NCBI GenBank assembly: GCA_043822065.1
Contig: JBDRCC010000007.1
Location: forward strand, 1-64,000
Reading direction: 5' to 3'
DNA length: 64,000 bases
From: JBDRCC01 sp043822065 [NCBI: archaeon]
Lineage (GTDB): Archaea > Undinarchaeota > CAZHTU01
In this document: in pieces, positions 3,194 to 46,842 of the stretch
How positions within the stretch are numbered: the first letter of the stretch is position 1
Layout: each line of letters opens with the position of its first letter
Made by a program: the position numbers and the translations under genes
Notes under the pieces: model-generated
What the model was told of the DNA's origin: nothing
What the model saw: the letters and a program-made list of their open reading frames with translations, nothing else
Database searches by the model: none

Positions 3194-3988
3194 ATGACCG
3201 ATACTCCTAATCCGGAAATAGCAGAGCTAGTTGGAGCTCATTTAGGTGATGGTTGCATCAGCATTACAAAATCTTACAGTGAATATGTTCTATGCGGAGA
3301 CCGAATCGAAGAAAGGGACTACTATGATGATTTTATAGTGCCTGTATTTAACAGACAAGTAGCTAAACCTATCCTCGGTCATGCGATTGTTCCGAAGGAT
3401 TATCCAAGTGTAGGCACCTATGGGATATACGTATTTGATAGCCGAGTTACTGATTTCTATGTTTGCGACTTAGGCATACCTTCCGGCAAAAAGGATAGGA
3501 TATCCGTGCCTAAATGTATTATTGAATCCGAGGATCCAACATTGTACAAGTCGTTGCTCCGTGGTTTGATAGATACTGACGGCTCGCTATTTTTTGAGAA
3601 AGGTTACAGTCGATGTAACTTGAAATGGAAGCGGGAGCACCACTATCGGCCCAAGATAAAAATAGGCGTAATCTCTAACATGTTAATCTCAGATGTGAAG
3701 CGAATGTTGGGCTTCTTGGGGATAGATTCACGAATAAAGAAGCCATACGCTGGCAGAAAAAATGAGGAAGTTCTACACGAGTTAATCATAGATACGCAAA
3801 ATTCTTTTTTAACTTATTGTTCAGAAATTGGCTTCAGAAACCCTAAGCATGCCACAAAACTAAATATTTGGGAAAGATATGGCTGCTGTCCGCCCCATAC
3901 GACCTTAAACCAACGAAGAAAAATACTTAAAGAAAACCGCGCTTCTTTAAACTACCTTAGTGCGCGGGAGTACCCGAGTCTGGTCTAA
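3194..3988 (+). CDS. Free-standing LAGLIDADG homing endonuclease
   Basis: 264 aa with two LAGLIDADG motifs, LVGAHLGDG at residues 12-20 and LLRGLIDTDG at 121-130; each supplies a catalytic acidic residue (D19 and D129 region). Two motifs mean a monomeric, pseudo-symmetric DNA endonuclease. No intein splice residues (N-terminal Cys/Ser, C-terminal HN) are present, so it is not an intein. Codons are visibly more A/T-ending than neighbours, a sign of recent acquisition. Its last eight codons and stop lie inside the 5' exon of the intron-bearing tRNA-Leu gene (25-bp overlap). The target site is unknown; the tRNA-Leu locus is the obvious candidate. Confidence 0.9.
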   Translation: MTDTPNPEIAELVGAHLGDGCISITKSYSEYVLCGDRIEERDYYDDFIVPVFNRQVAKPILGHAIVPKDYPSVGTYGIYVFDSRVTDFYVCDLGIPSGKKDRISVPKCIIESEDPTLYKSLLRGLIDTDGSLFFEKGYSRCNLKWKREHHYRPKIKIGVISNMLISDVKRMLGFLGIDSRIKKPYAGRKNEEVLHELIIDTQNSFLTYCSEIGFRNPKHATKLNIWERYGCCPPHTTLNQRRKILKENRASLNYLSAREYPSLV

Positions 3989-3996
3989 GGGGCAGG

Positions 3997-4028
3997 AGAG
4001 TTTTTAGGTCCGCCTATTACTCTGCCAA
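3997..4028 (+). other. tRNA-Leu intron 1 (32 nt, between positions 30 and 31)
   Basis: The central 4-bp helix GGCA/TGCC is flanked by 3-nt bulges GGA (5' strand) and AAA (3' strand), with GAGT/ACTC as the inner helix. Cleavage after the second base of each bulge joins ...CAGG to ACTTAAG, restoring the anticodon stem. The outer helix is short and includes a wobble pair, so this is a relaxed BHB at a non-canonical site. Confidence 0.75.
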
Positions 4029-4035
4029 ACTTAAG

Positions 4036-4057
4036 ATTAGCCCAAGGCTAATAAGCC
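4036..4057 (+). other. tRNA-Leu intron 2 (22 nt, canonical 37/38 site)
   Basis: A textbook BHB: outer helix CAGGA/TCCTG, central helix CTTA/TAAG, bulges AGA and CCA, and inner helix TTAGCC/GGCTAA with a CAA loop. Cleavage in the bulges leaves loop CTTAAGA. The outer helix requires prior removal or looping-out of intron 1, implying an order of splicing. Confidence 0.85.
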
Positions 4058-4114
4058 ATCCTGTGGCTTAGTGCCTCCGAGTGTTCAAATCACTCCTCCC
4101 GCACCATTTTATCA

Positions 4115-20608: not shown

Positions 20609-20680
20609 GGGGCCGTGGGGTAGTCTGGCGACCTTCTTTCAAAAAGAAGCGCGACCAAGAAACTCCCGGCTCAACCACGG
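20609..20680 (+). repeat. tRNA-Pro 5'-end mimic with inserted hairpin
   Basis: Bases 20609-20628 are identical to the first 20 bases of tRNA-Pro (20684-20703). They are followed by a stem CTTCTTT/AAAGAAG (enclosed by GCG/CGC) whose loop presents CAA in an anticodon-like context, then CGGCTC, which can pair with the mimic acceptor GGGCCG. No T arm is recognisable, so it is not a functional tRNA gene by sequence. Confidence 0.75.
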
Positions 20681-20683
20681 CAT

Positions 20684-20761
20684 GGGGCCGTGGGGTAGTC
20701 TGGTCTATCCTGCCGGCTTTGGGAGCCGGCGACCCCAATTCAAATTTGGGCGGCCCCACCA
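20684..20761 (+). tRNA. tRNA-Pro (TGG), CCA encoded
   Basis: Acceptor GGGGCCG/CGGCCCC perfect; anticodon stem CCGGC/GCCGG with loop TTTGGGA (TGG); T loop TTCAAAT; 3' CCA encoded. No intron. Confidence 0.95.
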
Positions 20762-20803
20762 CTAATCAAAGATTTTATATCCTAAGTGCTCTTCTACAAA
20801 AGC

Positions 20804-22204
20804 ATGCGCCGGCTGCTTTATCTCTTCACAATAATTGGGATTCTGGTAGCCCCCGCGCTCTGCGCAGACAAGTACATTTTCGTGTCAATCGAGGGCGAGC
20901 AGAGCAGGCTGGACGTCGATGAGCAGCTCGACCTTGTAGTGCAGGTCTTCAACCCAAACCACGAGGATATTAGCGTCACCCTTGAGGTGACTGGCGCGAT
21001 ATATTCCTGGGCGACCCTGAAGGACACCCGCCTTACTGTGCCGATGCTCTCTAATGCGTCCACGACCCTCTACGTCGACGCGCCATTCGACGCGCCGGCA
21101 GGCTCGTACAGCATAGGGGTGACTGCATACCTGTCAAAAGACAAGTCGCTGTCTGGGAAGGGCGGCTACACCCTTACCCTCCTCCCGCAAGAAAAGGTTT
21201 CCGTGCTTTCCTCAACTGACAAGGGCGAATACTCCCTTACCGACGAAATGTCATTCCTTGCGGAGGTCGAGAACCTCGGGAACGTCCAATACGACGACCT
21301 CACGGTGAAGGTCAGATTTTTGGGGCAGGCGGAATGGTCCACCGAAAAGAAAATATTCCTGGACTCCAAGGAGCGCAGGGCAGTCGCAATGGATGTTGAC
21401 CTCCAGAAAGTCGTCGCCGGCAAGCAAACAGTCCTGACCGAAGTATACGCTGCGGACAACTACCTCGCCAACACCACGAACCAGCTGACAATCTTCCCCA
21501 CAAAGGACATATCCAAAACAGAGAACTCGACTGCCGGCTTCTGGCGGAAAACCTACACTCTTGTAATTGAGAACCGCGGAAACACTCTCGAGGTGGTGGA
21601 CGTCAGAAAGGCATTCCTTCCGCTCGAGGCAAATTTCCTTTCATCGTCCATCGAGCCAGCAAGGGCGGGATTATTCTCTTCGACCTGGTCCATTACAGTC
21701 CTCCCTGGCGAGAAAAAAGTCCTTGAGTTCTACACCTACGGCACAGTCCTCTATATATTCGACCTAATCGCGCTCCTCGTTTTCCTTGGCTTCGGCTACC
21801 TGAGCATAATGAAAATCCAGAACCGCTCGCCTGCCGAGGTCACCAAGGGCATGGTCGCAATATACTCCAAGGGCGGGAGGATGGACCTGACCGTTTCACT
21901 CTTAATAAAGAACAAGGGCCCCCAGCGCCTCACAAACATACTCGTCACAGACTCAGTTCCGATAAGCGTCCGCGTCAGCCGGTTCAGGACGGCAAGGCCG
22001 ACGCAGATTAACGAGCGCAAGTACGAGATTGAGTACATGTGGTCAATTCACTCGCTCCAGCCGTTTGAGGAGCGCGTAATCGTCTACGACATAGGCGGCG
22101 AAGCCGTGCCCAAGACGCTCCCCCAGGCGACCGTCCGCTCGACCAACAAGCATGGCAAGACCCTCTTCCACAAGTCGAATATCGTCCGGCTCCAGCAGCC
22201 ATAG
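20804..22204 (+). CDS. Exported membrane-anchored protein with repeated Ig-like (CARDB/COG1361) domains
   Basis: 466 aa. Signal peptide MRRLLYLFTIIGILVAPALC; extracytoplasmic beta-sandwich domains at about 20-135, 135-230 and 235-315, each with the LDV/VQVFNPN and ENLGNVQYDD pattern of CARDB/COG1361 S-layer-associated repeats; one membrane helix (YIFDLIALLVFLGFGYLSIM) at about 320; then a DUF11-like region with INKGPQRLTNILVTDSVP. The frame reaches 20786, but ATG 20804 fits the signal peptide and the TTTTATAT box. Likely an S-layer or cell-surface component. Confidence 0.75.
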   Translation: MRRLLYLFTIIGILVAPALCADKYIFVSIEGEQSRLDVDEQLDLVVQVFNPNHEDISVTLEVTGAIYSWATLKDTRLTVPMLSNASTTLYVDAPFDAPAGSYSIGVTAYLSKDKSLSGKGGYTLTLLPQEKVSVLSSTDKGEYSLTDEMSFLAEVENLGNVQYDDLTVKVRFLGQAEWSTEKKIFLDSKERRAVAMDVDLQKVVAGKQTVLTEVYAADNYLANTTNQLTIFPTKDISKTENSTAGFWRKTYTLVIENRGNTLEVVDVRKAFLPLEANFLSSSIEPARAGLFSSTWSITVLPGEKKVLEFYTYGTVLYIFDLIALLVFLGFGYLSIMKIQNRSPAEVTKGMVAIYSKGGRMDLTVSLLIKNKGPQRLTNILVTDSVPISVRVSRFRTARPTQINERKYEIEYMWSIHSLQPFEERVIVYDIGGEAVPKTLPQATVRSTNKHGKTLFHKSNIVRLQQP

Positions 22205-22263
22205 CCTAACAGTAAATTTATTAAGCCATGGACTCTAACTAATCCTCACAGCTAGATTGGTTT

Positions 22264-22324
22264 GTCCCCTTGTAGCTCAATGGCAACCCTTTGCTTCGGC
22301 AAAGCGTTGGCGGAGAAGCTGAGG
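22264..22324 (+). repeat. tRNA-Tyr 5'-end mimic folded into a two-stem RNA
   Basis: Bases 22264-22283 repeat the 20 bases at 22333-22352 (the flank and 5' end of tRNA-Tyr). The downstream part forms CAAC-c-CTTTGC-TTCG-GCAAAG-c-GTTG, a hairpin with a UUCG tetraloop, and the tRNA-like 5' end (CCCTT, AGCT) can pair with AGCT-GAGGG at the 3' side. No T arm or acceptor 3' end is present. Confidence 0.75.
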
Positions 22325-22334
22325 GAAACAACGT

Positions 22335-22439
22335 CCCCTTGTAGCTCAATGGTAGAGCGTCCGGCTGTAGTCTGGTTAAGTCCGCAAGGAAAGCCATGCG
22401 GGCACCGGAAGGTTGCTGGTTCGAGTCCGGCCGAGGGGA
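22335..22439 (+). tRNA. tRNA-Tyr (GTA) with one intron
   Basis: C1-G72 acceptor CCCCTTG/CGAGGGG, the archaeal tRNA-Tyr identity pair, with discriminator A. Anticodon stem TCCGG/CCGGA, loop CTGTAG plus A after removal of the intron, anticodon GTA at 22367-22369. T arm GCTGG-TTCGAGT-CCGGC. CCA not encoded. Confidence 0.93.
22371..22403 (+). other. tRNA-Tyr intron (33 nt, 37/38 site)
   Basis: BHB geometry: central helix CTGT/GCGG (two wobbles), 3' bulge GCA, 5' bulge AGT and inner helix TGGTT/AGCCA. Removal gives a 7-nt anticodon loop. Confidence 0.8.
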
Positions 22440-22445
22440 CTCCTA
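22415..22445 (+). repeat. tRNA-Tyr 3'-end repeat, reference copy (c0)
   Basis: T arm, acceptor 3' strand and CTCCTA flank of the intact tRNA-Tyr. Five degenerate copies follow within 4 kb. Confidence 0.8.
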
Positions 22446-22517
22446 TTTATTTAAAAAATAAAGGTGCAGGAGAGCATTCCCCCGCACATCTCTTCATAAA
22501 ATCTTTACAAGCAGAAA

Positions 22518-22874
22518 TTACTTCCTAACAGTTGCGCTTACTTTTGAAGACGCTGCACCGGTTCTCCTATCTGGAGCCGTCTTGCTACCTGCAGTCCGTC
22601 TCTGCCTTCTAAAATCTTCCCGGTCATACTCTGTGGCAACTGCGTTAAATCCGCTGTTTCTCAGCTCATTGCTGGCATTCTTTCGAATCTCGTCAGAAGA
22701 ACTATCTTTATCTCCAAATCTTTTAGTTATCCTGTCCGATATCTGTCTCGCAACTTCATCGGCGCGGTCCTTAAAATCTGAAGTGCGGCGAGCTGCCTCA
22801 CGAATAGACCTCTCAATTTTCTGCCCGTTAAAGGCCTCTGTACCTCTTGAACCCCTTTTCTTAACTTTAGCCAT
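22518..22874 (-). CDS. Stand-alone ATP-cone domain protein
   Basis: 118 aa. Residues 2-85 follow the ATP-cone pattern: VKKRGSRGTEAFNGQKIERS (nucleotide-binding V-x-K-R-G and KIxxSI), IREAARR, ARQISDRI and SSDEIRKNASNEL, ending RNSGFNAVATEYDRE. ATP-cones sense ATP/dATP in ribonucleotide reductases and NrdR, but here no catalytic or zinc-ribbon partner is fused. The Arg/Ser/Lys-rich tail (residues 88-118) suggests nucleic-acid binding. Reverse to its neighbours, between tRNA-Tyr and repeat copy c1. Confidence 0.7.
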   Translation of the reverse strand: MAKVKKRGSRGTEAFNGQKIERSIREAARRTSDFKDRADEVARQISDRITKRFGDKDSSSDEIRKNASNELRNSGFNAVATEYDREDFRRQRRTAGSKTAPDRRTGAASSKVSATVRK

Positions 22875-22980
22875 TATTTTATCCCCCCATTTAAACCAAT
22901 CTTCTCATTTTATAAATTACTTGTGCATATACTTCCTATACGCTTAGGTTCACGCCCAATAGTCAAATGAAAGGTTCCGG

Positions 22981-23011
22981 GCTGGTTCAAATCCGGCCGA
23001 GGGGACTCCTA
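22981..23011 (+). repeat. tRNA-Tyr 3'-end repeat copy c1
   Basis: Matches c0 (22415-22445) at 29 of 31 positions, including the acceptor CGAGGGGA and flank CTCCTA. It lies 55 bp before the ACR3 start. Confidence 0.85.
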
Positions 23012-23065
23012 CAAAAAGAAAACTTATTTATTGAGCAAAAACTCTACTGAGCCTTAGTATAACCT

Positions 23066-24109
23066 ATGACCGAAAAACGAGAGCTTAAATTTTTCGAGAA
23101 GTACCTGACCCTCTGGGTTTCGTTGTGTATATTAGCCGGCATCCTGTTCGGGAAGTTTTTCCCGGCAGTTGCAACTTCGCTGAACGGCATCCAATATGCC
23201 AACGTATCAATACCCATAGCTGTCCTGCTGTTCTTTATGATATACCCCATAATGGTCCAGATAGACATTCGGGACGTCATAAAGGCAGGCAAAACGCCGA
23301 AGCCGGTTGCCCTCACGCTTTTCGTAAATTGGGCAATAAAGCCCTTCTCAATGGCATTCATTGCATGGCTTTTCATGAGCCGGATTTGGGCTGGTCTGAT
23401 TCCTGGGGCAATGGCGACGGAATACACCGCCGGCATGATTCTCCTTGGTGTGGCGCCCTGCACTGCAATGGTTCTCGTCTGGAGCTACCTCTCAAAGGGG
23501 AACATGGGCCATACGCTCGTCATGGTCGCAATAAACTCGCTCACGATGCTCGTTCTTTATGCGCCAATTGCGGGCTTCCTGCTCGGCCTTACAGACATAC
23601 CCGTCCCGTGGCTGACGATTGCATTATCCGTTGCCGTTTACGTTGGCGTCCCTCTATTTGCGGGATACTTCTCCAGGAAGGAGCTGTTGCGGAGGTGGGG
23701 GCTTACATGGTTTGAGGAATCTTTTGCCCCCAAGCTAAGGACAGTTTCCATAGTTGCACTCCTCATTACCCTTATCACACTGTTCAGCCTGCAGGGCGGC
23801 GTTATCCTTGCACAGCCATTCGTAATAGCTCTCATCGCAATACCTCTTTTTATCCAGACGATGTTCATTTTCGGCCTTAGCTATTGGCTGTCACAAAAAA
23901 TAGGGCTTACTTATGCCGATGCTGCCCCAACGTCCCAGATAGGTGCAAGCAACCACTTTGAGGTTGCGATTGCAATGGCAGTCATGCTTTTTGGGATAGA
24001 CTCCGGAGCGGCGCTGGCGACCGTAGTTGGAGTTTTAATCGAGGTCCCTGTTATGCTGGGTTTAGTCAAGATATGCCTTGCAACTCAGCATTGGTTTCGC
24101 TCTTCTTAA
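23066..24109 (+). CDS. acr3: ACR3-family arsenite efflux permease
   Basis: 347 aa, ten helices, full length. Hallmarks: [31 protein letters not shown] with the essential Cys132, and [19 protein letters not shown] followed by [18 protein letters not shown]. It extrudes arsenite (As(III)) driven by the proton gradient. No arsR or arsC is adjacent. Its stop is followed within 6 bp by repeat c2. Codon choice is more A/T-ending than in the ribosomal operon, consistent with transfer. Confidence 0.93.
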
Positions 24110-24114
24110 AAAGA

Positions 24115-24150
24115 GGGATTACAATTGCAGTTGAAACCCGGCAGAGGGGA
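24115..24150 (+). repeat. tRNA-Tyr 3'-end-like repeat copy c2
   Basis: GGGATTACAATTGCAGTTGA then AACCCGGCAGAGGGGA; matches c3 at 33 of 36 positions and resembles the T-arm/acceptor part of tRNA-Tyr (TGCxGTTxGA..CCGG..GAGGGGA). Followed by CCTATTTATA as after tRNA-Tyr. Begins 5 bp after the acr3 stop. Confidence 0.75.
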
Positions 24151-24182
24151 CCTATTTATATTTCTACGTTTTAACACATGCC

Positions 24183-24695
24183 ATGGCTTCCAAAATAAAA
24201 CTCTATGCCAAAGGCATTGAATCGTATCTCATCTCAACTGTAATCCTTGGCAATTTTATGATGCTCTCATGGATTGCACTGGGGACCATGGCTACCCGGT
24301 TCTTCAGCCCCCTGATTGCTCAGGCTTATCTGGCCATTGCTTTGATAATGGTCTACGTTGTCTTGCGGAAGCTCGTATGCACAAACTGCTATTACTATGG
24401 CAAGTGGTGCCCTACTGGCTGGGGAAAACTGTCTGCACGTCTATTCAAGAAAGGAAAGGTAGACGAATTTGCAAACAGCATTGGCGTAAAACTCGCCCCG
24501 GCTACATATGGGCTGTTGAGTCTGGTTCCGATTGTACTAATTATTATTTCACTATGGCAAGCCTTTACATCCTCTAAGGTTGTTGTACTGGTGCTGCTGC
24601 TTTTGGTTTCAGCTTACAGTGGCTCAATAGGCAGAAAGAAGTCCTGCGCGAACTGCAAGATGCGATTAATTTGTCCTGGCTGTGCTGTGAAGTAA
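24183..24695 (+). CDS. Cys-motif membrane protein of unknown function
   Basis: 170 aa with four predicted helices (about residues 12-33, 40-62, 103-121 and 129-145). A cytoplasmic-facing cysteine cluster CTNCYYYGKWCPTGWGK follows helix 2, and a second set (SCANCKMRLICPGC) closes the C-terminus, suggesting thiol chemistry or soft-metal binding. Sits between an arsenite pump and an MFS transporter, so arsenic or metal handling is a reasonable but unproven guess. The stop precedes repeat c3 by 4 bp. Confidence 0.65.
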   Translation: MASKIKLYAKGIESYLISTVILGNFMMLSWIALGTMATRFFSPLIAQAYLAIALIMVYVVLRKLVCTNCYYYGKWCPTGWGKLSARLFKKGKVDEFANSIGVKLAPATYGLLSLVPIVLIIISLWQAFTSSKVVVLVLLLLVSAYSGSIGRKKSCANCKMRLICPGCAVK

Positions 24696-24699
24696 TTCA

Positions 24700-24735
24700 G
24701 GGATTACACTTGCAGTTGAAATCTGGCAGAGGGGA
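24700..24735 (+). repeat. tRNA-Tyr 3'-end-like repeat copy c3
   Basis: Differs from c2 at three of 36 positions. Begins 4 bp after the stop of the Cys-motif membrane protein gene. Confidence 0.75.
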
Positions 24736-24786
24736 TGTTTCCATTTTGTACGATAAAAATATAACCTGCTCTTCTTTACCTCTATC

Positions 24787-25950
24787 ATGCCGCAGAACAG
24801 AAAGCTTGGGGGGCTTGGAAGAAACATACTTTTGCTCGCCATTGTCAGCTTCTTAGCTGATGTCAGCAGTGAGATGATAACGCCGATTCTCCCGCTGTTC
24901 ATTCTTACACTTGGCGGGACAGGCGTAGCAATTGGCCTGATAGGTGGCGTAGGGGACTCCATTGCAAGCTTCCTGAAGGTTCTGTCCGGCTACTGGTCCG
25001 ATAGAATTGGGAAGCGCAAGCCGCTGGTAGTAGCCGGATACTTTACCTCTGCCTGCGCTAAATTGTTTTTTCCATTCGCAGCGGTGTGGCAACACATACT
25101 ACTACTAAGGTCTGCCGAAAGAGTCGGCAAGGGCGTCCGCACTGCACCACGTGACGCAATAATAGCACTGTCTTCGGACAGAAAGAAACTTGGCAAGGGG
25201 TTTGGCTTTAATCGGGCAGCAGACTCTGCAGGGGCCGTAGTTGGGACTTCCCTCGCGTTCATCTTTTTTTGGTTTCTTCATTTCGATTTGCAGAAAATCT
25301 TCCTGATAGCTGCGTTTGTCGCCTTCCTGGCCTTGGTGCCGCTTCATTTTGTCAAGGAGAAAAATTCAATGCCCACTAAGTCAAACCTGAAAATTAGTCT
25401 GTCGTCCCTTCCGCCGAAACTTCAGTCGTTTATCTTTATTTCAGCCCTCTTCTCATTTGCCGATTTCACTTACATGTTCTTTATTTTAAGGGCTGGCGAG
25501 TCATTCTCTGGAACTGCAGCGGTTGCAGTGCCGATACTGCTGTATCTCCTGTTCAATATGACTTACGCTTCTTTCTCAGTCAAAACCGGTGACCTCTCTG
25601 ACAGAATAGGGAGGACGAAAGTAATACGCGCAGGTTACCTCTTGTTTGTGGCAGTTTGCATTGGTTTTGTCTTTCTTGAGTCACTGCCTTGCCTTGTGCT
25701 CCTCTTCCTCGCCTATGGCATTGTCTACGCCCTGGTGGACGGAACTCAGCGCGCATATGTCTCGGACCTCAGCAGCGAAGGACTCAAGGGGACAGCACTT
25801 GGCACATTCCACGCCGCAAACGGATTCGCAGACCTACCGAGCGGGATTATCGCAGGTGTCCTATGGCAGTACGTAAGCCACGAAGCGACATTCGTTTTCG
25901 GGGCGTTTTTCGCCCTGTGCGCTTTCATATTGTTAAGGAACCAAAATTAA
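24787..25950 (+). CDS. MFS transporter
   Basis: 387 aa, about twelve helices. MFS landmarks: LADVSSEMITPILPLFIL in helix 1, the loop 2-3 motif GYWSDRIGKRKPLV (G-x-x-x-D-R/K-x-G-R/K-R/K), and RVGKGVRTAPRDAIIA in loop 4-5, seen in drug/organo-ion exporters of the DHA type. The loop 8-9 copy GDLSDRIGRTKVI is also present. Substrate unknown; neighbours suggest arsenical or metal detoxification. The stop codon is 1 bp from repeat c4. Confidence 0.9.
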   Translation: MPQNRKLGGLGRNILLLAIVSFLADVSSEMITPILPLFILTLGGTGVAIGLIGGVGDSIASFLKVLSGYWSDRIGKRKPLVVAGYFTSACAKLFFPFAAVWQHILLLRSAERVGKGVRTAPRDAIIALSSDRKKLGKGFGFNRAADSAGAVVGTSLAFIFFWFLHFDLQKIFLIAAFVAFLALVPLHFVKEKNSMPTKSNLKISLSSLPPKLQSFIFISALFSFADFTYMFFILRAGESFSGTAAVAVPILLYLLFNMTYASFSVKTGDLSDRIGRTKVIRAGYLLFVAVCIGFVFLESLPCLVLLFLAYGIVYALVDGTQRAYVSDLSSEGLKGTALGTFHAANGFADLPSGIIAGVLWQYVSHEATFVFGAFFALCAFILLRNQN

Positions 25951-25951
25951 T

Positions 25952-25985
25952 GGAATTATAACTGTAGTTGAAACACAGCCGAGGG
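25952..25985 (+). repeat. tRNA-Tyr 3'-end-like repeat copy c4
   Basis: GGAATTATAACTGTAGTTGA then AACACAGCCGAGGG; aligns to c2 without gaps at about 26 of 34 positions. Begins 1 bp after the MFS stop. Confidence 0.65.
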
Positions 25986-26013
25986 CACGCCCCCTCTATT
26001 TGGCAATACATAA

Positions 26014-26065
26014 CCATATAAACTTCCTCTGCCAAGAAGTACTGCCCCATTATTCATCGGGGCAG
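26014..26065 (+). promoter_or_regulatory. TATA box plus 5'-terminal mRNA hairpin of CxxC gene 1
   Basis: TATA CCATATAAAC (26014-26023); 28 bp from its start begins a perfect 7-bp hairpin CTGCCCC (26042-26048) / GGGGCAG (26059-26065) with a 10-nt loop, 12 nt before the ATG. CxxC gene 2 has the same layout and spacing. Confidence 0.7.
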
Positions 26066-26077
26066 GAATAAAACATA

Positions 26078-26290
26078 ATGGCATACGAAAACAACTTCCA
26101 AGGTGGAAGTGGAAACTTTAACAGGCCGCCGCGCGAGATGCACTCCGTTGACATAAATGGCAACGAGCTCGTTTGCGCAGACTGCAAAACAACTGGTTTC
26201 CAGCTACCTTTCAAGGCAGACGGCAGCAGGCCGGTTTACTGCTCGGATTGTAACAGGAATCACAGACCACCACAGAGAGACAGGTTTTAG
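26078..26290 (+). CDS. CxxC-x18-CxxC zinc-ribbon mini-protein 1
   Basis: 70 aa. A disordered Asn/Gly/Arg-rich N-terminus (MAYENNFQGGSGNFNRPPRE) precedes one zinc ribbon: CADC-x18-CSDC, with TTGFQLPF between the knuckles, as in the CxxC-x17-CxxC small-protein family. The RGG-like head and basic tail (NRNHRPPQRDRF) suggest RNA binding. A paralogue lies at 27051-27281 with a matching promoter, 5' hairpin and 3' hairpin, so the whole transcription unit was duplicated. Confidence 0.85.
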   Translation: MAYENNFQGGSGNFNRPPREMHSVDINGNELVCADCKTTGFQLPFKADGSRPVYCSDCNRNHRPPQRDRF

Positions 26291-26302
26291 TAAATAGCGC
26301 AT

Positions 26303-26330
26303 AGAAAAATTAGCACATATTGATTTTTCT
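26303..26330 (+). terminator. 3' hairpin of CxxC gene 1
   Basis: Perfect 8-bp stem AGAAAAAT/ATTTTTCT with a 12-nt loop, starting 12 nt after the stop. The paralogous gene has a related hairpin at the same distance. Confidence 0.55.
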
Positions 26331-26381
26331 TAAAGAGATTTACTGAATAGCTACGCCTCTATAGGGGTGGGACTGAAAACA

Positions 26382-26430
26382 GATTGTACCTTTAGTTGGC
26401 CCTCAGGCGAGGGCTCAACTATTTATTTAA
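26382..26430 (+). repeat. Weak candidate repeat copy c5
   Basis: GATTGTACCTTTAGTTGG, GGCGAGGG and the flank CTATTTATTTAA echo c0-c2, including the 11-base flank after tRNA-Tyr. Strongly decayed; only suggestive. Confidence 0.35.
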
Positions 26431-26593
26431 CTCGTTCTCGAATTTTTCATACTACTCAGAGTAGACCTGCTCCGCCGGCTTTCCGCGGATGTTCCACTCC
26501 TTGCTCTTTGGGGACGAAGCGGGTGCTTATACTATTGAAGTATATTTGATTGCAGCCTCACGCATGGGGCTTCGTAAACGCTTTGTGGTTTAG

Positions 26594-26941
26594 TATCCTC
26601 ACCAGGACAATCAGCGGCAGTTCGACCCGCTCTATGAGAAATACGGCACGCCGATAATCATGATGACGCCATTCCAGAGCTGCGAGTACGGCGCAAAGCA
26701 GGACTGGTTCGAGCCGATGATGCTCCAGCCGGACGTCAAGCAGGACCTGGTTGCGCAGGCAGACATGTACGAGGCGTTCTTCTCAGCGACAATCGACGAG
26801 CCATGGTTTGCCGGGCTCATGACCTGGGGCTACTACTTTGAGGACGAGTTCAACACTAAGGAGTATGCCTCAGAAAAGTCCTCGACCGTCAGGAACAAGC
26901 CGGCGGCGCAGATTGTCAAAAAAATGGTTCGAGCAGATTGA
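26594..26941 (+). pseudogene. C-terminal remnant of a glycoside hydrolase (TIM-barrel type)
   Basis: The frame opens after an in-frame TAG at 26591 and has no start: YPHQDNQRQFDPLYEKYGTP, then IIMMTPFQSCEYGAKQDWFEP and FFSATIDEPWFAGLMTWGYY, ending RNKPAAQIVKKMVRAD. The combination E-Y-G (catalytic-strand-like), DEPWFAGLMTWGY and RNKPAA is typical of the last strands of clan A glycoside hydrolases (GH113-like). The upstream two thirds of the barrel are missing, so it is broken. Confidence 0.55.
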
Positions 26942-26982
26942 GTAATCTCCCTCCCTTCAGCCAATACATGGGGGATACAAAT

Positions 26983-27036
26983 CTATATAAACCCCTATTG
27001 ACAAATAAAACTGTCCTCACATACTGTTGAGGGCAG
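26983..27036 (+). promoter_or_regulatory. TATA box plus 5'-terminal mRNA hairpin of CxxC gene 2
   Basis: TATA CTATATAAAC (26983-26992); 28 bp from its start an 8-bp stem CTGTCCTC (27011-27018) / GAGGGCAG (27029-27036) with one G-U pair and a 10-nt loop, then GAAAAATAA before the ATG. Confidence 0.7.
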
Positions 27037-27050
27037 GAAAAATAACTAAA

Positions 27051-27281
27051 ATGGATCGTGAAAACAGATTCGGTGGACGCGGAAGAAGTAACTTTGACAG
27101 GCCTCGCGGAAATTTCGACAGGCCGGATAGGGAAATGCACACAACGTATGACGACGGCACTCCGACGGTTTGCGCAGACTGCAAAGCAACCGGCTTTGGC
27201 GTACCCTTCCAGCCAAAAAAGGACAGGGACCTCTACTGCCAAAACTGCATAAAAAACCACCAGAAGCCAAGAAGGTTCTAA
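27051..27281 (+). CDS. CxxC-x18-CxxC zinc-ribbon mini-protein 2
   Basis: 76 aa, paralogue of the 26078 gene. The N-terminus is richer in RG/FDRP repeats (FGGRGRSNFDRPRGNFDRP), an RGG-like RNA-binding tail; the ribbon is CADC-x18-CQNC with the same ATGFGVPF core, then KNHQKPRRF. ATG 27051 is preferred over an upstream ATG at 27027, which lies inside the leader hairpin. The ribbon and the leader/trailer architecture are shared with copy 1; the spacer between them (a broken hydrolase) is not. Confidence 0.85.
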   Translation: MDRENRFGGRGRSNFDRPRGNFDRPDREMHTTYDDGTPTVCADCKATGFGVPFQPKKDRDLYCQNCIKNHQKPRRF

Positions 27282-27293
27282 CAAGTAGACCCT

Positions 27294-27322
27294 AGAAAAG
27301 ATTAAACTTTTTGATTTTTTCT
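27294..27322 (+). terminator. 3' hairpin of CxxC gene 2
   Basis: AGAAAA/TTTTCT stem, starting 12 nt after the stop as in CxxC gene 1, with neighbouring TTGATTTTTTCTTAGAGCTTTACT closely matching copy 1. Confidence 0.5.
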
Positions 27323-27359
27323 TAGAGCTTTACTTAGTGTAAGATTTGCACAAATATAT

Positions 27360-27390
27360 CCCGGCAGTTTTGCCGGGTACAATTTTTTTT
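27360..27390 (+). terminator. Strong hairpin-plus-T-run terminator
   Basis: Stem CCCGGCA/TGCCGGG (7 bp) with a GTTT loop, then TAC AA and eight T residues. Lies between CxxC gene 2 and the convergent SFM1-like gene. Confidence 0.8.
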
Positions 27391-27406
27391 ATCAACAATA
27401 GGTTAG

Positions 27407-27967
27407 CTATCCCTTTTTTCTTAAATACTCAAGAAGCCCTGGCGTGAGGACCGGCTTGCCCTCGAACACAGGTATTGCGTAATCAAGGGTTATGCTCTCA
27501 TTCTCGCTGAACTCAATCTCCGGCTTGTTTGAGAGCAGTACATCCTCCAGCTTTGCCCCGTCCGCAACCTTCTTCGCCATGAAGCATGCCCCGTCGATGC
27601 TAAGCTGGTACTGGCCGATTGAGCGCGGGATTCCGTTGAGCTTGGACGTTATGAGGTCCTTTGTCCTCCCGCGGGGCATGGCGTCGCCAAGTATGCCCCC
27701 GATTACAATCTTGTCTGCAAGCTTGAAGTCATCCGGGCTGAGGAGCTTATCCGTCTGAGGGTCAAGCACGATAACCTTTTCGCCTTTCAGGAAATCTGCC
27801 GCGCTCTCCTTGCGGAAATGCCCTATTTTTCCTATGGCCCGCTGGTCTTTCTCCAGGCTGACGTTGGTGAACAGCAGCTCACCGCCGGCAATCTTCCCGC
27901 AGTGCCTGTACTCGAGCTCCATCCACTCGCTTACGCCCCGTTCGCAGTGCTCGACAATGAAAAGCAT
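27407..27967 (-). CDS. SFM1-like SPOUT methyltransferase (DUF431)
   Basis: 186 aa. Starts MLFIVEHCERGVSEWMELEY, matching the (I/V)EH-x-E-x-G-x-SEW opening of the DUF431/SFM1 family; IVIGGILGDAMPRGRTKDL is the SPOUT knot-like glycine-rich SAM loop, with PRSIGQYQLSIDGA after it. Yeast SFM1 methylates an arginine of ribosomal protein uS3; the archaeal target is not established. The frame extends to 28045, but those codons lie at or before the predicted transcription start, so ATG 27967 is preferred. Confidence 0.75.
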   Translation of the reverse strand: MLFIVEHCERGVSEWMELEYRHCGKIAGGELLFTNVSLEKDQRAIGKIGHFRKESAADFLKGEKVIVLDPQTDKLLSPDDFKLADKIVIGGILGDAMPRGRTKDLITSKLNGIPRSIGQYQLSIDGACFMAKKVADGAKLEDVLLSNKPEIEFSENESITLDYAIPVFEGKPVLTPGLLEYLRKKG

Positions 27968-28044
27968 ACTGAAATTATCTCGCCTTGGTTTAAGTCCTTG
28001 CGGGTGCGGCCGCCGCATTATGCCAAATTCCAAGCTTGGTGACA

Positions 28045-28055
28045 TTTTTATACTG
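28045..28055. promoter_or_regulatory. Overlapping bidirectional TATA element
   Basis: TTTTTATACTG reads as TATA on the plus strand (29 bp before ATG 28074, leaderless) and as GTATAAAAA on the minus strand toward the SFM1-like gene. One site may serve both genes. Confidence 0.45.
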
Positions 28056-28073
28056 CCTTGGATTCAATAGATT

Positions 28074-28721
28074 ATGGCGCTTTACAACACGACCCAGATA
28101 GCCCCGCTCATTGCGGAGAACTTCTCAACTGCTGATGCAATTGCCGCGTCGCGCCCGCTTGCAGCTTATGTTTTTGCAATAGCAATATACGCAATCTTCA
28201 TCTTCAAGTTCTACCGGTTCCTTGGACGGAAAGACGTCTTTTCCATCGACCTGGCGAAACACTCCAACACCCGATTTGCGGGCGCAAAGAAGTTCTTCAG
28301 CGTAGTTTTTTATGTACTCAAGTACCTGATACTCTTCCCGCTTGTCGTCTTCGTATGGTTTGCATTCCTCGCCCTGATGCTGATATTCCTGGCGAAGAGC
28401 GGCACAGTTGAGCAAATAATGCTAATCTCAGTTTCGCTTGTCGGCGCCGTTCGCGTCTGCGCCTACTACGACGAGGACCTATCGAAGGACTTGGCGAAGC
28501 TGCTGCCGCTGGCTCTGCTTGGCGTTTTCATCGTTGACCGGTCGTACTTCAACTTCAGCAATTCGGTACTGACCCTCTTGTCCCTTCCGGACTACTGGAA
28601 GCTCCTGAGCTACTACATGGTCTTCATAGTTTCGCTTGAGTTTGTGCTCCGGGTGCTGTCCGGCACCGCAGGCATGCTGTTTGGCCGTGGCGAAAAAAAG
28701 CAGCAAAACATAAAGGATTAA
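28074..28721 (+). CDS. Polytopic membrane protein of unknown function
   Basis: 215 aa with about five helices: residues 27-46, 79-107 (FYVLKYLILFPLVVFVWFAF), 113-130, 143-160 and 178-200. A basic cytoplasmic loop (FYRFLGRKDVFSIDLAKHSN) lies between helices 1 and 2, and the C-terminus is charged (GRGEKKQQNIKD). No family recognised. Followed 24 bp later by a second small membrane protein on the same strand. Confidence 0.75.
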   Translation: MALYNTTQIAPLIAENFSTADAIAASRPLAAYVFAIAIYAIFIFKFYRFLGRKDVFSIDLAKHSNTRFAGAKKFFSVVFYVLKYLILFPLVVFVWFAFLALMLIFLAKSGTVEQIMLISVSLVGAVRVCAYYDEDLSKDLAKLLPLALLGVFIVDRSYFNFSNSVLTLLSLPDYWKLLSYYMVFIVSLEFVLRVLSGTAGMLFGRGEKKQQNIKD

Positions 28722-28745
28722 ATATTCCAGGGACAAAGGATAGCT

Positions 28746-29051
28746 ATGGCAATCGTGCTTTTTAACTCAGTAACGTTGGCCTTTTCCGTGCCAATCTTTG
28801 CCGGAGCCGCAGCAGGCTTCATACGGGCGTTTCTCGGCTACCTCAAGGCGCGCTACAAGAACGGCGAGGCATTCGTTGCAGGGAAATTCGTCCAGCCAAT
28901 TATTTTTTCAGCAGGTGTCGGGGCCGCGATTGGGTACTATATGTCGCAGGCAGATCCTTTATTCATAGGCGCGGTCGCAATCGCAGGCAGCACGCTAATT
29001 GACTCCATCGTATGGGTTTTTGTAGGGAAGAAAAAGCCGCAGGCCGATTAG
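28746..29051 (+). CDS. Small three-helix membrane protein
   Basis: 101 aa with three hydrophobic segments (about 5-28, 49-67 and 70-92) and basic connecting loops (LKARYKNGEAF) and tail (GKKKPQAD). No family recognised. Its stop overlaps the end of the convergent lipoprotein-like gene by 4 bp. Confidence 0.7.
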   Translation: MAIVLFNSVTLAFSVPIFAGAAAGFIRAFLGYLKARYKNGEAFVAGKFVQPIIFSAGVGAAIGYYMSQADPLFIGAVAIAGSTLIDSIVWVFVGKKKPQAD

Positions 29052-46293: not shown

Positions 46294-46842
46294 ATGCCGC
46301 TCAGCAAAAACAAGATAGTGGGGGCTGCCATAACTCTTAGCCTATTGACCGTACTAACCAACACCTACTATCCAAAGCTTTTCTACTTCCTGGTGTTCGC
46401 AAGCATCGGCCTCATCTCGAAGTACTACAAGGCGGTTTACGCAGTCTCTTTCCTGATAATCGACCTGACGGATTTTTTTGTAATCCTCGCCTTCTACAAG
46501 CTCGGCTCTACCTACGCGTTCGCGCTCGTGCCGATTTTTGCCTATTTTTACCTTGTAACTGGATTGTACGGCAATGAGGGCCCAACGGACTGCACCTCTA
46601 GATTCATAGGGCATTTGCTCAACACCCTCCTGTTGTTTTACACTGCCGCCGTGTACCCTCCTGCGACTGTCTTTTTCATCTATATACTATTGGCCGGCCT
46701 AATCTGGGGTACAAACCAGATGCTGATGTTCCACATAATAAACCCAGTCTACTACCCCATAGCTATCTGCCGCGCAGCGCTCTACTGGCGGGTTCTGCCA
46801 TACCTCCTTCCGCTTATCGGTTTAGCGACTATCCCCCCTTAG
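46294..46842 (+). CDS. Polytopic membrane protein, tandem paralogue B
   Basis: 182 aa, the second copy of the tandem pair, starting MPLSKNKIVG and ending LPLIGLATIPP. Shares all conserved blocks with copy A (GLISKYYKA, VSFLIIDLTD, GNEGPTDCT, INPVYYPIAICRA). Preceded by GATTTAAAGC, another TATA-like box at similar spacing. Divergence is spread along the length, so the duplication is not recent. Function unknown. Confidence 0.75.
   Translation: MPLSKNKIVGAAITLSLLTVLTNTYYPKLFYFLVFASIGLISKYYKAVYAVSFLIIDLTDFFVILAFYKLGSTYAFALVPIFAYFYLVTGLYGNEGPTDCTSRFIGHLLNTLLLFYTAAVYPPATVFFIYILLAGLIWGTNQMLMFHIINPVYYPIAICRAALYWRVLPYLLPLIGLATIPP

What the first reader, a model, noticed from the sequence alone, without database searches (positions are those of the whole stretch)
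22335..26430. Chain of gene segments bounded by degenerate tRNA-Tyr 3'-end repeats
After tRNA-Tyr, copies of its T-arm/acceptor end recur at 22981 (29 of 31 bases identical to 22415-22445), 24115, 24700 (c2 and c3 differ at 3 of 36), 25952 and more weakly 26382. Segments between them mostly hold one gene each: ATP-cone protein, ACR3, Cys-motif membrane protein, MFS, CxxC protein. For three consecutive genes the repeat begins 5, 4 and 1 bp after the stop codon. This looks like gene cassettes each carrying a tRNA-derived recombination site at the 3' end, or successive insertions at one tRNA gene leaving att remnants. No integrase is in the window. An alternative is tRNA-like 3'-UTR elements used for transcript 3' processing.
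Basis: partly seen in the sequence, partly recalled or inferred. Interest (0 to 1): 0.82.

Follow-up and report, generated by a model that had tools for sequence, protein, structure and literature searches.

The report
Single-gene cassettes stacked on tRNA ends
In an obscure group of small-genome archaea, short DNA pieces and single genes insert at the ends of tRNA genes, often leaving a stub copy of the tRNA end, and the reported window looks like an old stack of such insertions; the enzyme that does it is unknown.

Summary
The chain is real. Downstream of tRNA-Tyr, four degenerate copies of the tRNA 3' end (c1-c4) pass leave-one-out profile searches; the fifth (c5) does not. The segments hold one gene each: ATP-cone, ACR3, a Cys-motif membrane protein, MFS, a zinc finger.

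The six nearest relatives found (an unnamed phylum, sister to the window) show the process in fresh form. Of 175 tRNAs, 18 carry a copy of their own 3' end (mostly T-loop to nt 73) beyond an insert, and 8 a copy of their own 5' end upstream. Empty and occupied sites differ between close genomes. One ~96-bp family was found only at tRNA 3' ends (11 matches; 8 followed by a repeat of that tRNA's own end), which fits a target-site duplication, not a fixed att site. One relative has an intact single-gene cassette at tRNA-Glu, its stop codon 5 bp before the repeat; the site is empty in two relatives.

Tyrosine recombinase, Cas1, reverse transcriptase and Y1 transposase were each found in 0 of 6 genomes. 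Best reading: serial insertion by an unidentified tRNA-end-directed integration system. The window's own empty site was not seen.

The parts
22335..22439 (+). tRNA-Tyr (GTA) with intron, intact target gene (c0)
   Evidence: Rfam; ARAGORN with introns
22264..22283 (+). exact 20-bp copy of the tRNA-Tyr 5' end (from -2 into the D-loop), followed by a 49-bp insert: a 5'-side insertion
20609..20628 (+). exact 20-bp copy of the tRNA-Pro 5' end, followed by a 55-bp insert before tRNA-Pro (20684): a second 5'-side insertion
22444..22980 (-). segment 1: ATP-cone protein gene (22518-22874, minus), GC3 0.403 against a median of 0.686 for 30 window genes
22981..23011 (+). copy c1; exact direct repeat TCCGGCCGAGGGGACTCCTA starting at tRNA nt 60
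23012..24113 (+). segment 2: ACR3 arsenite efflux gene 23066-24109 (TIGR00832, 383 bits against cut-off 282.8)
24114..24150 (+). copy c2: shared element end (GGATTACAATTGCAGTTGAAA) plus tRNA-derived CCCGGCAGAGGGGA, 4 nt after the ACR3 stop
24151..24698 (+). segment 3: Cys-motif membrane protein gene 24183-24695, no family at the thresholds used
24699..24735 (+). copy c3, 92% identical to c2, 3 nt after the stop
24736..25950 (+). segment 4: MFS transporter gene 24787-25950 (PF07690)
25951..25987 (+). copy c4, 76% identical to c2, directly after the stop
25988..26376 (+). segment 5: treble-clef zinc-finger protein gene 26078-26290 (PF23477)
26377..26430 (+). copy c5 (doubtful): fails leave-one-out, but shares the tRNA flank CTATTTATTTAA; possible oldest stub with the original flank

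Best explanation
The chain is a stack of serial insertions at the 3' end of tRNA-Tyr, made by a DNA-integration process directed to tRNA gene ends that has been recently active in the nearest related phylum. Shown in relatives: an insert lies at or just past the tRNA 3' end, leaves the tRNA intact on its upstream side, and in 18 of 175 tRNAs (window included) is followed by a direct repeat of that tRNA's own end, from the T-loop (start at nt 56-61 in 15 of 18) to nt 73 plus 0-14 bp of flank (16 of 18); these 18 inserts are 20-115 bp, or 551 and 869 bp with a gene. A mirror version at 5' ends duplicates nt 1 into the D-arm or D-loop. Inferred: an unidentified integrase makes a staggered cut, just after the conserved GTTC of the T-loop on one strand and just beyond the tRNA 3' end on the other, joins a short DNA, and gap repair makes the repeat. 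Because the intact tRNA is restored it can be hit again, so the newest cassette sits next to the tRNA and older stubs decay with distance. In the window three of the four + strand cassettes (ACR3, membrane protein, MFS) share a ~20-nt end right after the stop codon (GGATTACAMTTGCAGTTGAAA in c2 and c3, diverged in c4), so one element end seems to have carried different single genes. The enzyme is probably supplied by an extrachromosomal element or belongs to a family not tested here.
For: Counts: of 175 tRNAs in seven genomes (window included) 18 have an exact copy (11 nt or more) of their own 3' end within 1.2 kb downstream and 8 of their own 5' end within 200 nt upstream; random placement gives 36 of 8750 and 9 of 8750. 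Empty and occupied sites: G131 against G089 tRNA-Thr(tgt), G069 against G089 tRNA-Lys(ctt); tRNA-Glu(ctc) empty in G131 and G069, 761 bp longer in G089. Indels of 40 bp or more within 60 bp of tRNA ends: 6 of 10, 16 of 27 and 7 of 19 in three genome pairs, where 2-3% of aligned bases lie there. Same element at different tRNAs, each with that tRNA's own repeat: G110 family, 5 of 5 strong copies; G089/G131 96-bp family, 11 matches at tRNA 3' ends, 7 with an exact own repeat and 1 with one mismatch. Gene cassettes: G089 tRNA-Glu, stop 5 bp before the repeat; G110 tRNA-Val, 869 bp to a 24-bp repeat. Decay gradient 14, 12, 12, 10, 8 of 14 in the window. GC3 of the ATP-cone, membrane and MFS genes is below all of 30 other window genes.
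Against: No enzyme found. The window has no close relative, so no empty tRNA-Tyr site was seen for this chain. c5 fails leave-one-out and c3/c4 match the tRNA only through c2. The exact element end of c2/c3 is in none of the 292 loci held. The cassette genes are not in 1.64 Mb of relatives except a distant MFS (24%) and a zinc-finger homologue (42%), but neither are the two chromosomal neighbours I tested, so this says little. Of seven gene-sized inserts looked at in relatives only two (G089 Glu, G110 Val) have a right-hand repeat; G131 Leu(gag), G089 Leu(taa), G131 Val(cac), G069 Met and G069 Thr do not. The Val(cac) difference is at least partly a deletion in G069, which still holds the tail of the gene, and the 2-kb difference at tRNA-Asn may be a deletion too; the direction of most indels was not determined. 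Three of the 11 members of the 96-bp family lack a seen repeat: Leu(gag), Leu(tag), and one beside a masked stretch. Repeat length varies (11-30 bp in 16 of 18, 47 and 101 in two), untypical of one transposase. The insert folds are mostly no better than shuffles (z -2.1 to 0.0 in 15 inserts). The zinc-finger paralogue outside the chain also has low GC3 (0.553).
Confidence: 0.74

Rival explanations
1. Classical tyrosine-recombinase integration: small integrase-less (CIME- or satellite-like) elements mobilised in trans and accreted at tRNA att sites; the repeats are attR remnants.
For: tRNA 3' ends are a usual att site (recalled; also PMC9897764 passages); serial accretion is known in bacteria (CIMEs, recalled; search listing); direct repeats flank segments.
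Against: PF00589 in 0 of 6 related genomes, control 14 of 14; the genomes may be incomplete. One element family has target-specific repeats at Tyr, Thr, Arg, Ala and Lys, another at Arg, Phe, Ile, Val, Thr, Glu and Pro, which a fixed attP cannot give.
Confidence: 0.13
2. Casposon-like (Cas1) transposition of non-autonomous elements into tRNA ends.
For: Casposase of A. boonei duplicates 14-15 bp, prefers a site at the tRNA-Pro 3' end and reads the motif TCAAATC (PMC6614799, passages read); repeats here mostly begin in the T-loop, where that motif lies, and 13 of 18 are 16-24 bp.
Against: Cas1 (PF01867) in 0 of 6 genomes, control 9 of 14. No terminal inverted repeats in five 96-bp family members. 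In A. boonei the motif lies 8 bp outside the duplication; here the repeat edge falls within it.
Confidence: 0.07
3. tRNA-like 3'-UTR elements used for mRNA 3' processing or termination.
For: Three consecutive genes end 0-4 nt before the repeat; own promoters could follow each repeat (by eye only).
Against: c2-c4 have no intact T-stem (by eye); copies exist with non-coding inserts, with minus-strand genes (ATP-cone, G110 Val) and at tRNA 5' ends; differences between close genomes concentrate at tRNA ends.
Confidence: 0.03
4. Assembly or binning artefacts at tRNA repeats of metagenome genomes.
For: The relatives are unnamed and fragmented into many contigs; G131 has 7049 N bases.
Against: Different families in different genomes; the tRNA-Pro(tgg) insert is in both G131 and G089; graded decay of copies in the window; other archaea screened the same way show 3 of 162 3' copies and 0 of 162 5' copies.
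Confidence: 0.03

Closest known systems
Casposons and Cas1-solo (casposase) integration (PMC6614799, passages)
   Same: Insertion at a tRNA 3' end, short target-site duplication, T-loop motif in the target
   Different: No Cas1 found in six genomes (PolB was not tested), no terminal inverted repeats in the main family, inserts of 20-870 bp, both tRNA ends used, many different tRNAs, repeat edge inside the T-loop
Integron cassette arrays and CALINs, including archaeal ones (PMC9668308, passages)
   Same: Tandem single-gene segments in mostly one orientation, each ended by a degenerate related repeat, no integrase found alongside
   Different: Repeats derive from the tRNA target; attC core motifs are absent from c1-c4; the array is anchored to a tRNA gene, not to attI
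CIME / ICE accretion at tRNA genes and tycheposons (recalled; listings)
   Same: Accretion of cargo at a tRNA gene with partial tRNA copies
   Different: Those elements are kilobases long and depend on known recombinases (recalled); here single genes or mini-inserts and no PF00589 in six genomes
Integrated elements leaving partial tRNA genes in Thermococcaceae (PMC9897764, passages)
   Same: Partial tRNA duplication by integration
   Different: There ~9-23 kb of viral DNA per event
MITEs (recalled; listings)
   Same: Short non-coding dispersed elements with target-site duplication, differing between close genomes
   Different: No terminal inverted repeats in the main family; found only at tRNA ends

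Membership tests
Casposon | Cas1-solo integrase gene | tested here: not met
   PF01867 in 0 of 6 related genomes; the window's genome is not held
Casposon | terminal inverted repeats | tested here: not met
   Five 96-bp members: 38 to 498 of 500 shuffles reach the observed score. Their 51- and 66-bp derivatives: 36 and 17 of 500. The unrelated 42- and 47-bp inserts, hairpin-like, do score high: 0 and 3 of 500
Casposon | 14-15 bp target-site duplication at a tRNA 3' end | tested here: inconclusive
   Repeats at tRNA 3' ends, but 16-24 bp in 13 of 18 and variable
Integron / CALIN | attC core motifs RYYYAAC and GTTRRRY (motifs recalled) | tested here: not met
   neither motif in c1-c4; only RYYYAAC in c5
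Integron / CALIN | tandem single-gene cassettes ended by related repeats | tested here: met
tRNA-targeted element of a tyrosine recombinase (ICE, CIME, SSV type) | tyrosine recombinase in the element or genome | tested here: not met
   PF00589 in 0 of 6 related genomes, control 14 of 14; window genome not held
tRNA-targeted element of a tyrosine recombinase (ICE, CIME, SSV type) | fixed attP shared by copies of one element | tested here: not met
   copies carry the repeat of their own tRNA: 5 of 5 in G110, 8 of 11 in the 96-bp family, none seen in the other 3
Retroelement (target-primed) | reverse transcriptase | tested here: not met
   PF00078 in 0 of 6 genomes, control 3 of 14
IS200/IS605 | Y1 transposase | tested here: not met
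   PF01797 in 0 of 6 genomes, control 5 of 14
DDE transposase or serine recombinase element | matching enzyme gene | not tested
any integrase-driven system | circular or linear free intermediate | not testable with these tools
   needs reads or cells

The most novel reading that the evidence does not exclude
This archaeal lineage runs an undescribed tRNA-end integration system, with an unknown enzyme family, that reads the T-loop or D-loop region of many different tRNA genes and loads short DNA and whole single genes next to them, making tRNA genes a distributed, integron-like capture platform without tyrosine recombinase or Cas1.
Probability: 0.4. Interest if true: 0.9.

Novelty: new variant of a known kind. 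Interest (0 to 1): 0.74.

Why it matters
It would show how small-genome archaea in which no recombinase of the usual kinds was found still gain genes one at a time, and it gives a defined target (T-loop to nt 73), defined products (empty and occupied sites) and candidate strains in which to look for the enzyme. The arsenite exporter in the window shows that useful cargo may be caught this way.

Tried and rejected
Whole genome of the window: not held. Plasmid records: no near match of 20700-28800. Viral contigs: one phage-like contig with a tRNA-Ile for the tRNA-end pattern, none for the c2/c3 pattern, for the membrane protein or for a 21-nt pattern of the 96-bp element. 36 other archaeal genomes have no match to the membrane protein; without a positive control this shows little. 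The repeat at 4078-4110 flagged by BLAST is by eye the 3' end of an intron-containing tRNA that ARAGORN missed, so not a remnant. Terminal hairpins as a hallmark: seen by eye, but folding energies are mostly no better than shuffles, so dropped. Four large differences and the G131 Leu(gag) insert were opened in search of an integrase; by eye none was recognised, and those proteins were not searched against families. A protein fragment of the G110 Val insert reached no Pfam cut-off.

Eight literature searches in the held library listed no paper that, by title or abstract start, describes this; subscription papers are missing from it. Seen: passages of PMC6614799, PMC9897764 and PMC9668308; other papers only as search listings; tycheposons, CIMEs, MITEs and the attC motifs mostly recalled.
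Full report
OBSERVATION. The tRNA-Tyr gene (22335-22439, intron-bearing) is followed by degenerate copies of its 3' end. c1 is 29 of 31 identical; c2, c3 and c4 form one 37-nt family (92% and 76%). Against 300 first-order Markov sequences of 4.5 kb (maximum score 27), c1 (53), c2 (32) and c5 (28) stand out by their match to the tRNA; c3 and c4 (18 each) do not by themselves. Leave-one-out profiles over the 64-kb window recover c0-c4 (E 4e-8 to 2e-5; best non-copy hit 0.09) but not c5 (E 2.6). c2-c4 share ~20 nt before the tRNA-derived part (GGATTACAMTTGCAGTTGAAA in c2 and c3) that the tRNA lacks. Identity to tRNA nt 60-73 falls with distance: 14, 12, 12, 10, 8 of 14 (2 of 120 orders are non-increasing; the last two values are near background).

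SEGMENTS. ATP-cone (minus), ACR3 (TIGR00832, 383 bits), a Cys-motif membrane protein without family, MFS, and a treble-clef zinc finger. GC3 of the ATP-cone, membrane and MFS genes (0.40, 0.51, 0.55) lies below all of 30 other window genes (0.565-0.755); ACR3 and the zinc finger (0.58, 0.59) are near the bottom; the zinc-finger paralogue outside the chain is low too (0.553).

WHERE THE WINDOW SITS. No genome is held for it. RNA polymerase and elongation-factor genes have the same order; ARAGORN shows tRNA-Asp and tRNA-Lys before them in four of the six, one of the two in the others. In a RpoB'+RpoA' tree with nine other archaeal loci (five of 14 chosen were dropped for missing a gene) the window is sister to the six with support 1.0, on a long branch. 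Membership in that phylum is likely but not shown.

THE SAME PROCESS IN RELATIVES. I scanned tRNAs for exact copies of their own ends. Among 175 tRNAs, 18 have a copy (11 nt or more) of their 3' end reaching the tRNA's last base within 1.2 kb downstream, and 8 a copy of their 5' end starting at nt 1 within 200 nt upstream (window tRNA-Pro and tRNA-Tyr among them, 20 bp each). Random placement gives 36 of 8750 and 9 of 8750. In a first set of 126 tRNAs, 9 and 9 had own matches of 11 nt or more within 400 nt, against 28 of 3705 and 23 of 3741 permuted pairs. In 15 of 18 cases the 3' repeat starts at nt 56-61, in the T-loop. Other archaea: 2 of 127 and 0 of 127, 1 of 35 and 0 of 35; the one is by eye a second whole tRNA-Ser. 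Fisher test 18/175 against 3/162: p 0.0013.

INSERTIONS ARE RECENT AND REPEATED. Between G131 and G089 (~94% identical), 8 of 25 comparable tRNA loci differ by 40 bp or more right at the tRNA 3' end and 2 of 25 at the 5' end (my count from the table). Of indels of 40 bp or more in fetched, aligned sequence, 6 of 10 (G131-G089; 23 more dropped for N), 16 of 27 (G089-G069) and 7 of 19 (G131-G069; 30 dropped for N) lie within 60 bp of tRNA ends, which hold 2-3% of aligned bases (the pairs share events and are not independent; stretches were chosen around tRNAs; direction of change mostly not determined). Some are probably deletions: at Val(cac) G069 keeps the tail of the gene. Sequence-level empty sites: tRNA-Thr(tgt) and tRNA-Lys(ctt), tRNA-Glu(ctc).

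ONE ELEMENT, MANY tRNAs, OWN REPEAT. In G110 a ~90-bp family has five strong copies genome-wide, all beside tRNAs and all with an own repeat of 11-15 nt: upstream of Tyr, Thr, Arg and Ala, downstream and reversed at Lys; two weak hits (E 0.06 and 0.7) were set aside. In G089/G131 a ~96-bp family has 11 matches in the six genomes (E up to 0.01): ten beside an intact tRNA 3' end and one beside a masked stretch that begins with what reads as the 5' half of a tRNA-Ser. Seven are followed by an exact repeat of their own tRNA, one by a repeat with one mismatch (G089 Pro(tgg)), two by none (Leu(gag), Leu(tag)), one is masked. This argues for duplication of the target on insertion, against a fixed attP.

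GENE-CARRYING CASES. At G089 tRNA-Glu(ctc): tRNA - 51-bp mini-insert - copy - ~680-bp cassette with an intact glutamine-amidotransferase gene (GMP synthase subunit A-like, 148.9 bits, below the cut-off of 198) - third copy starting 5 bp after the stop codon; empty in G131 and G069; cassette GC 0.299 against 0.418. At G110 tRNA-Val(cac): 869 bp with what looks like a broken minus-strand gene, and a 24-bp repeat. Without a right-hand repeat: G069 Met (a complete + strand endonuclease/exonuclease/phosphatase-like gene, not at this place in G131 or G089), G089 Leu(taa) (cupin-like), G069 Thr (truncated ABC ATPase), G131 Leu(gag) and G131 Val(cac). So two of seven gene-sized inserts keep the full anatomy of the window chain; the others may have lost it or arisen otherwise.

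MECHANISM. Shown in relatives: target position, repeat from the target, stacking, single-gene cargo, recent change. Inferred: a staggered cut after GTTC of the T-loop and beyond nt 73, insertion, gap repair. In 8 of 17 cases GTTC also occurs in the last 16 nt before the repeat (3.2% in random 16-mers of the same inserts), as if the element end mimics the target. No enzyme: PF00589, PF01867, PF00078 and PF01797 in 0 of 6 genomes each; completeness of these genomes was not told.

LIMITS. The window chain lacks its own empty-site comparison. c5 is doubtful. Repeat length varies more than for known transposases. DDE and serine enzymes were not tested.

VERDICT.

Noticed in passing
window 20609-20703 and 22264-22352: Exact 20-bp copies of the 5' ends of tRNA-Pro and tRNA-Tyr lie 75 and 69 bp upstream, with 55- and 49-bp inserts between.
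   Followed up: yes
window 3964-4106: Probable intron-containing class II tRNA (Leu or Ser) with encoded CCA, not listed by ARAGORN or by Rfam at gathering score; judged by eye.
   Followed up: no
window 26003-26328 and 26990-27319: Two paralogous zinc-finger genes with similar leader and trailer, ~1 kb apart; one inside the chain, one outside it. A homologue lies downstream of tRNA-Asn in G069, G089 and G131.
   Followed up: partly
window 26660-26941: Fragment resembling the C-terminal part of glycoside hydrolase family 113 (E 6e-4, below cut-off), perhaps a decayed gene just beyond c5.
   Followed up: no
L219 11433-11507 (G089 contig C35, tRNA-Pro(ggg) at 46433-46507, minus) and its downstream side: Exact head-to-tail repeat of an 84-bp unit (66-bp insert plus 18-bp tRNA end), giving a 101-bp exact repeat: amplification of a mini-insert.
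   Followed up: partly
L210 2366-2441 (G089 contig C24, downstream of tRNA-Val(cac)): A 76-bp insert that seems to contain the 3' end of a different tRNA (GGTTCAAATCCTCAGCCGTGGCGC).
   Followed up: no
genomes G110, G150, G047, G131, G069, G089: No match to PF00589 (E up to 0.001), so not even an XerA-like recombinase was found; completeness of the genomes is unknown.
   Followed up: no
L161 (G110 contig C5, tRNA-Lys(ttt)): tRNA - element - 3'-end copy - second, partial element: a stack of two mini-inserts at one tRNA.
   Followed up: partly
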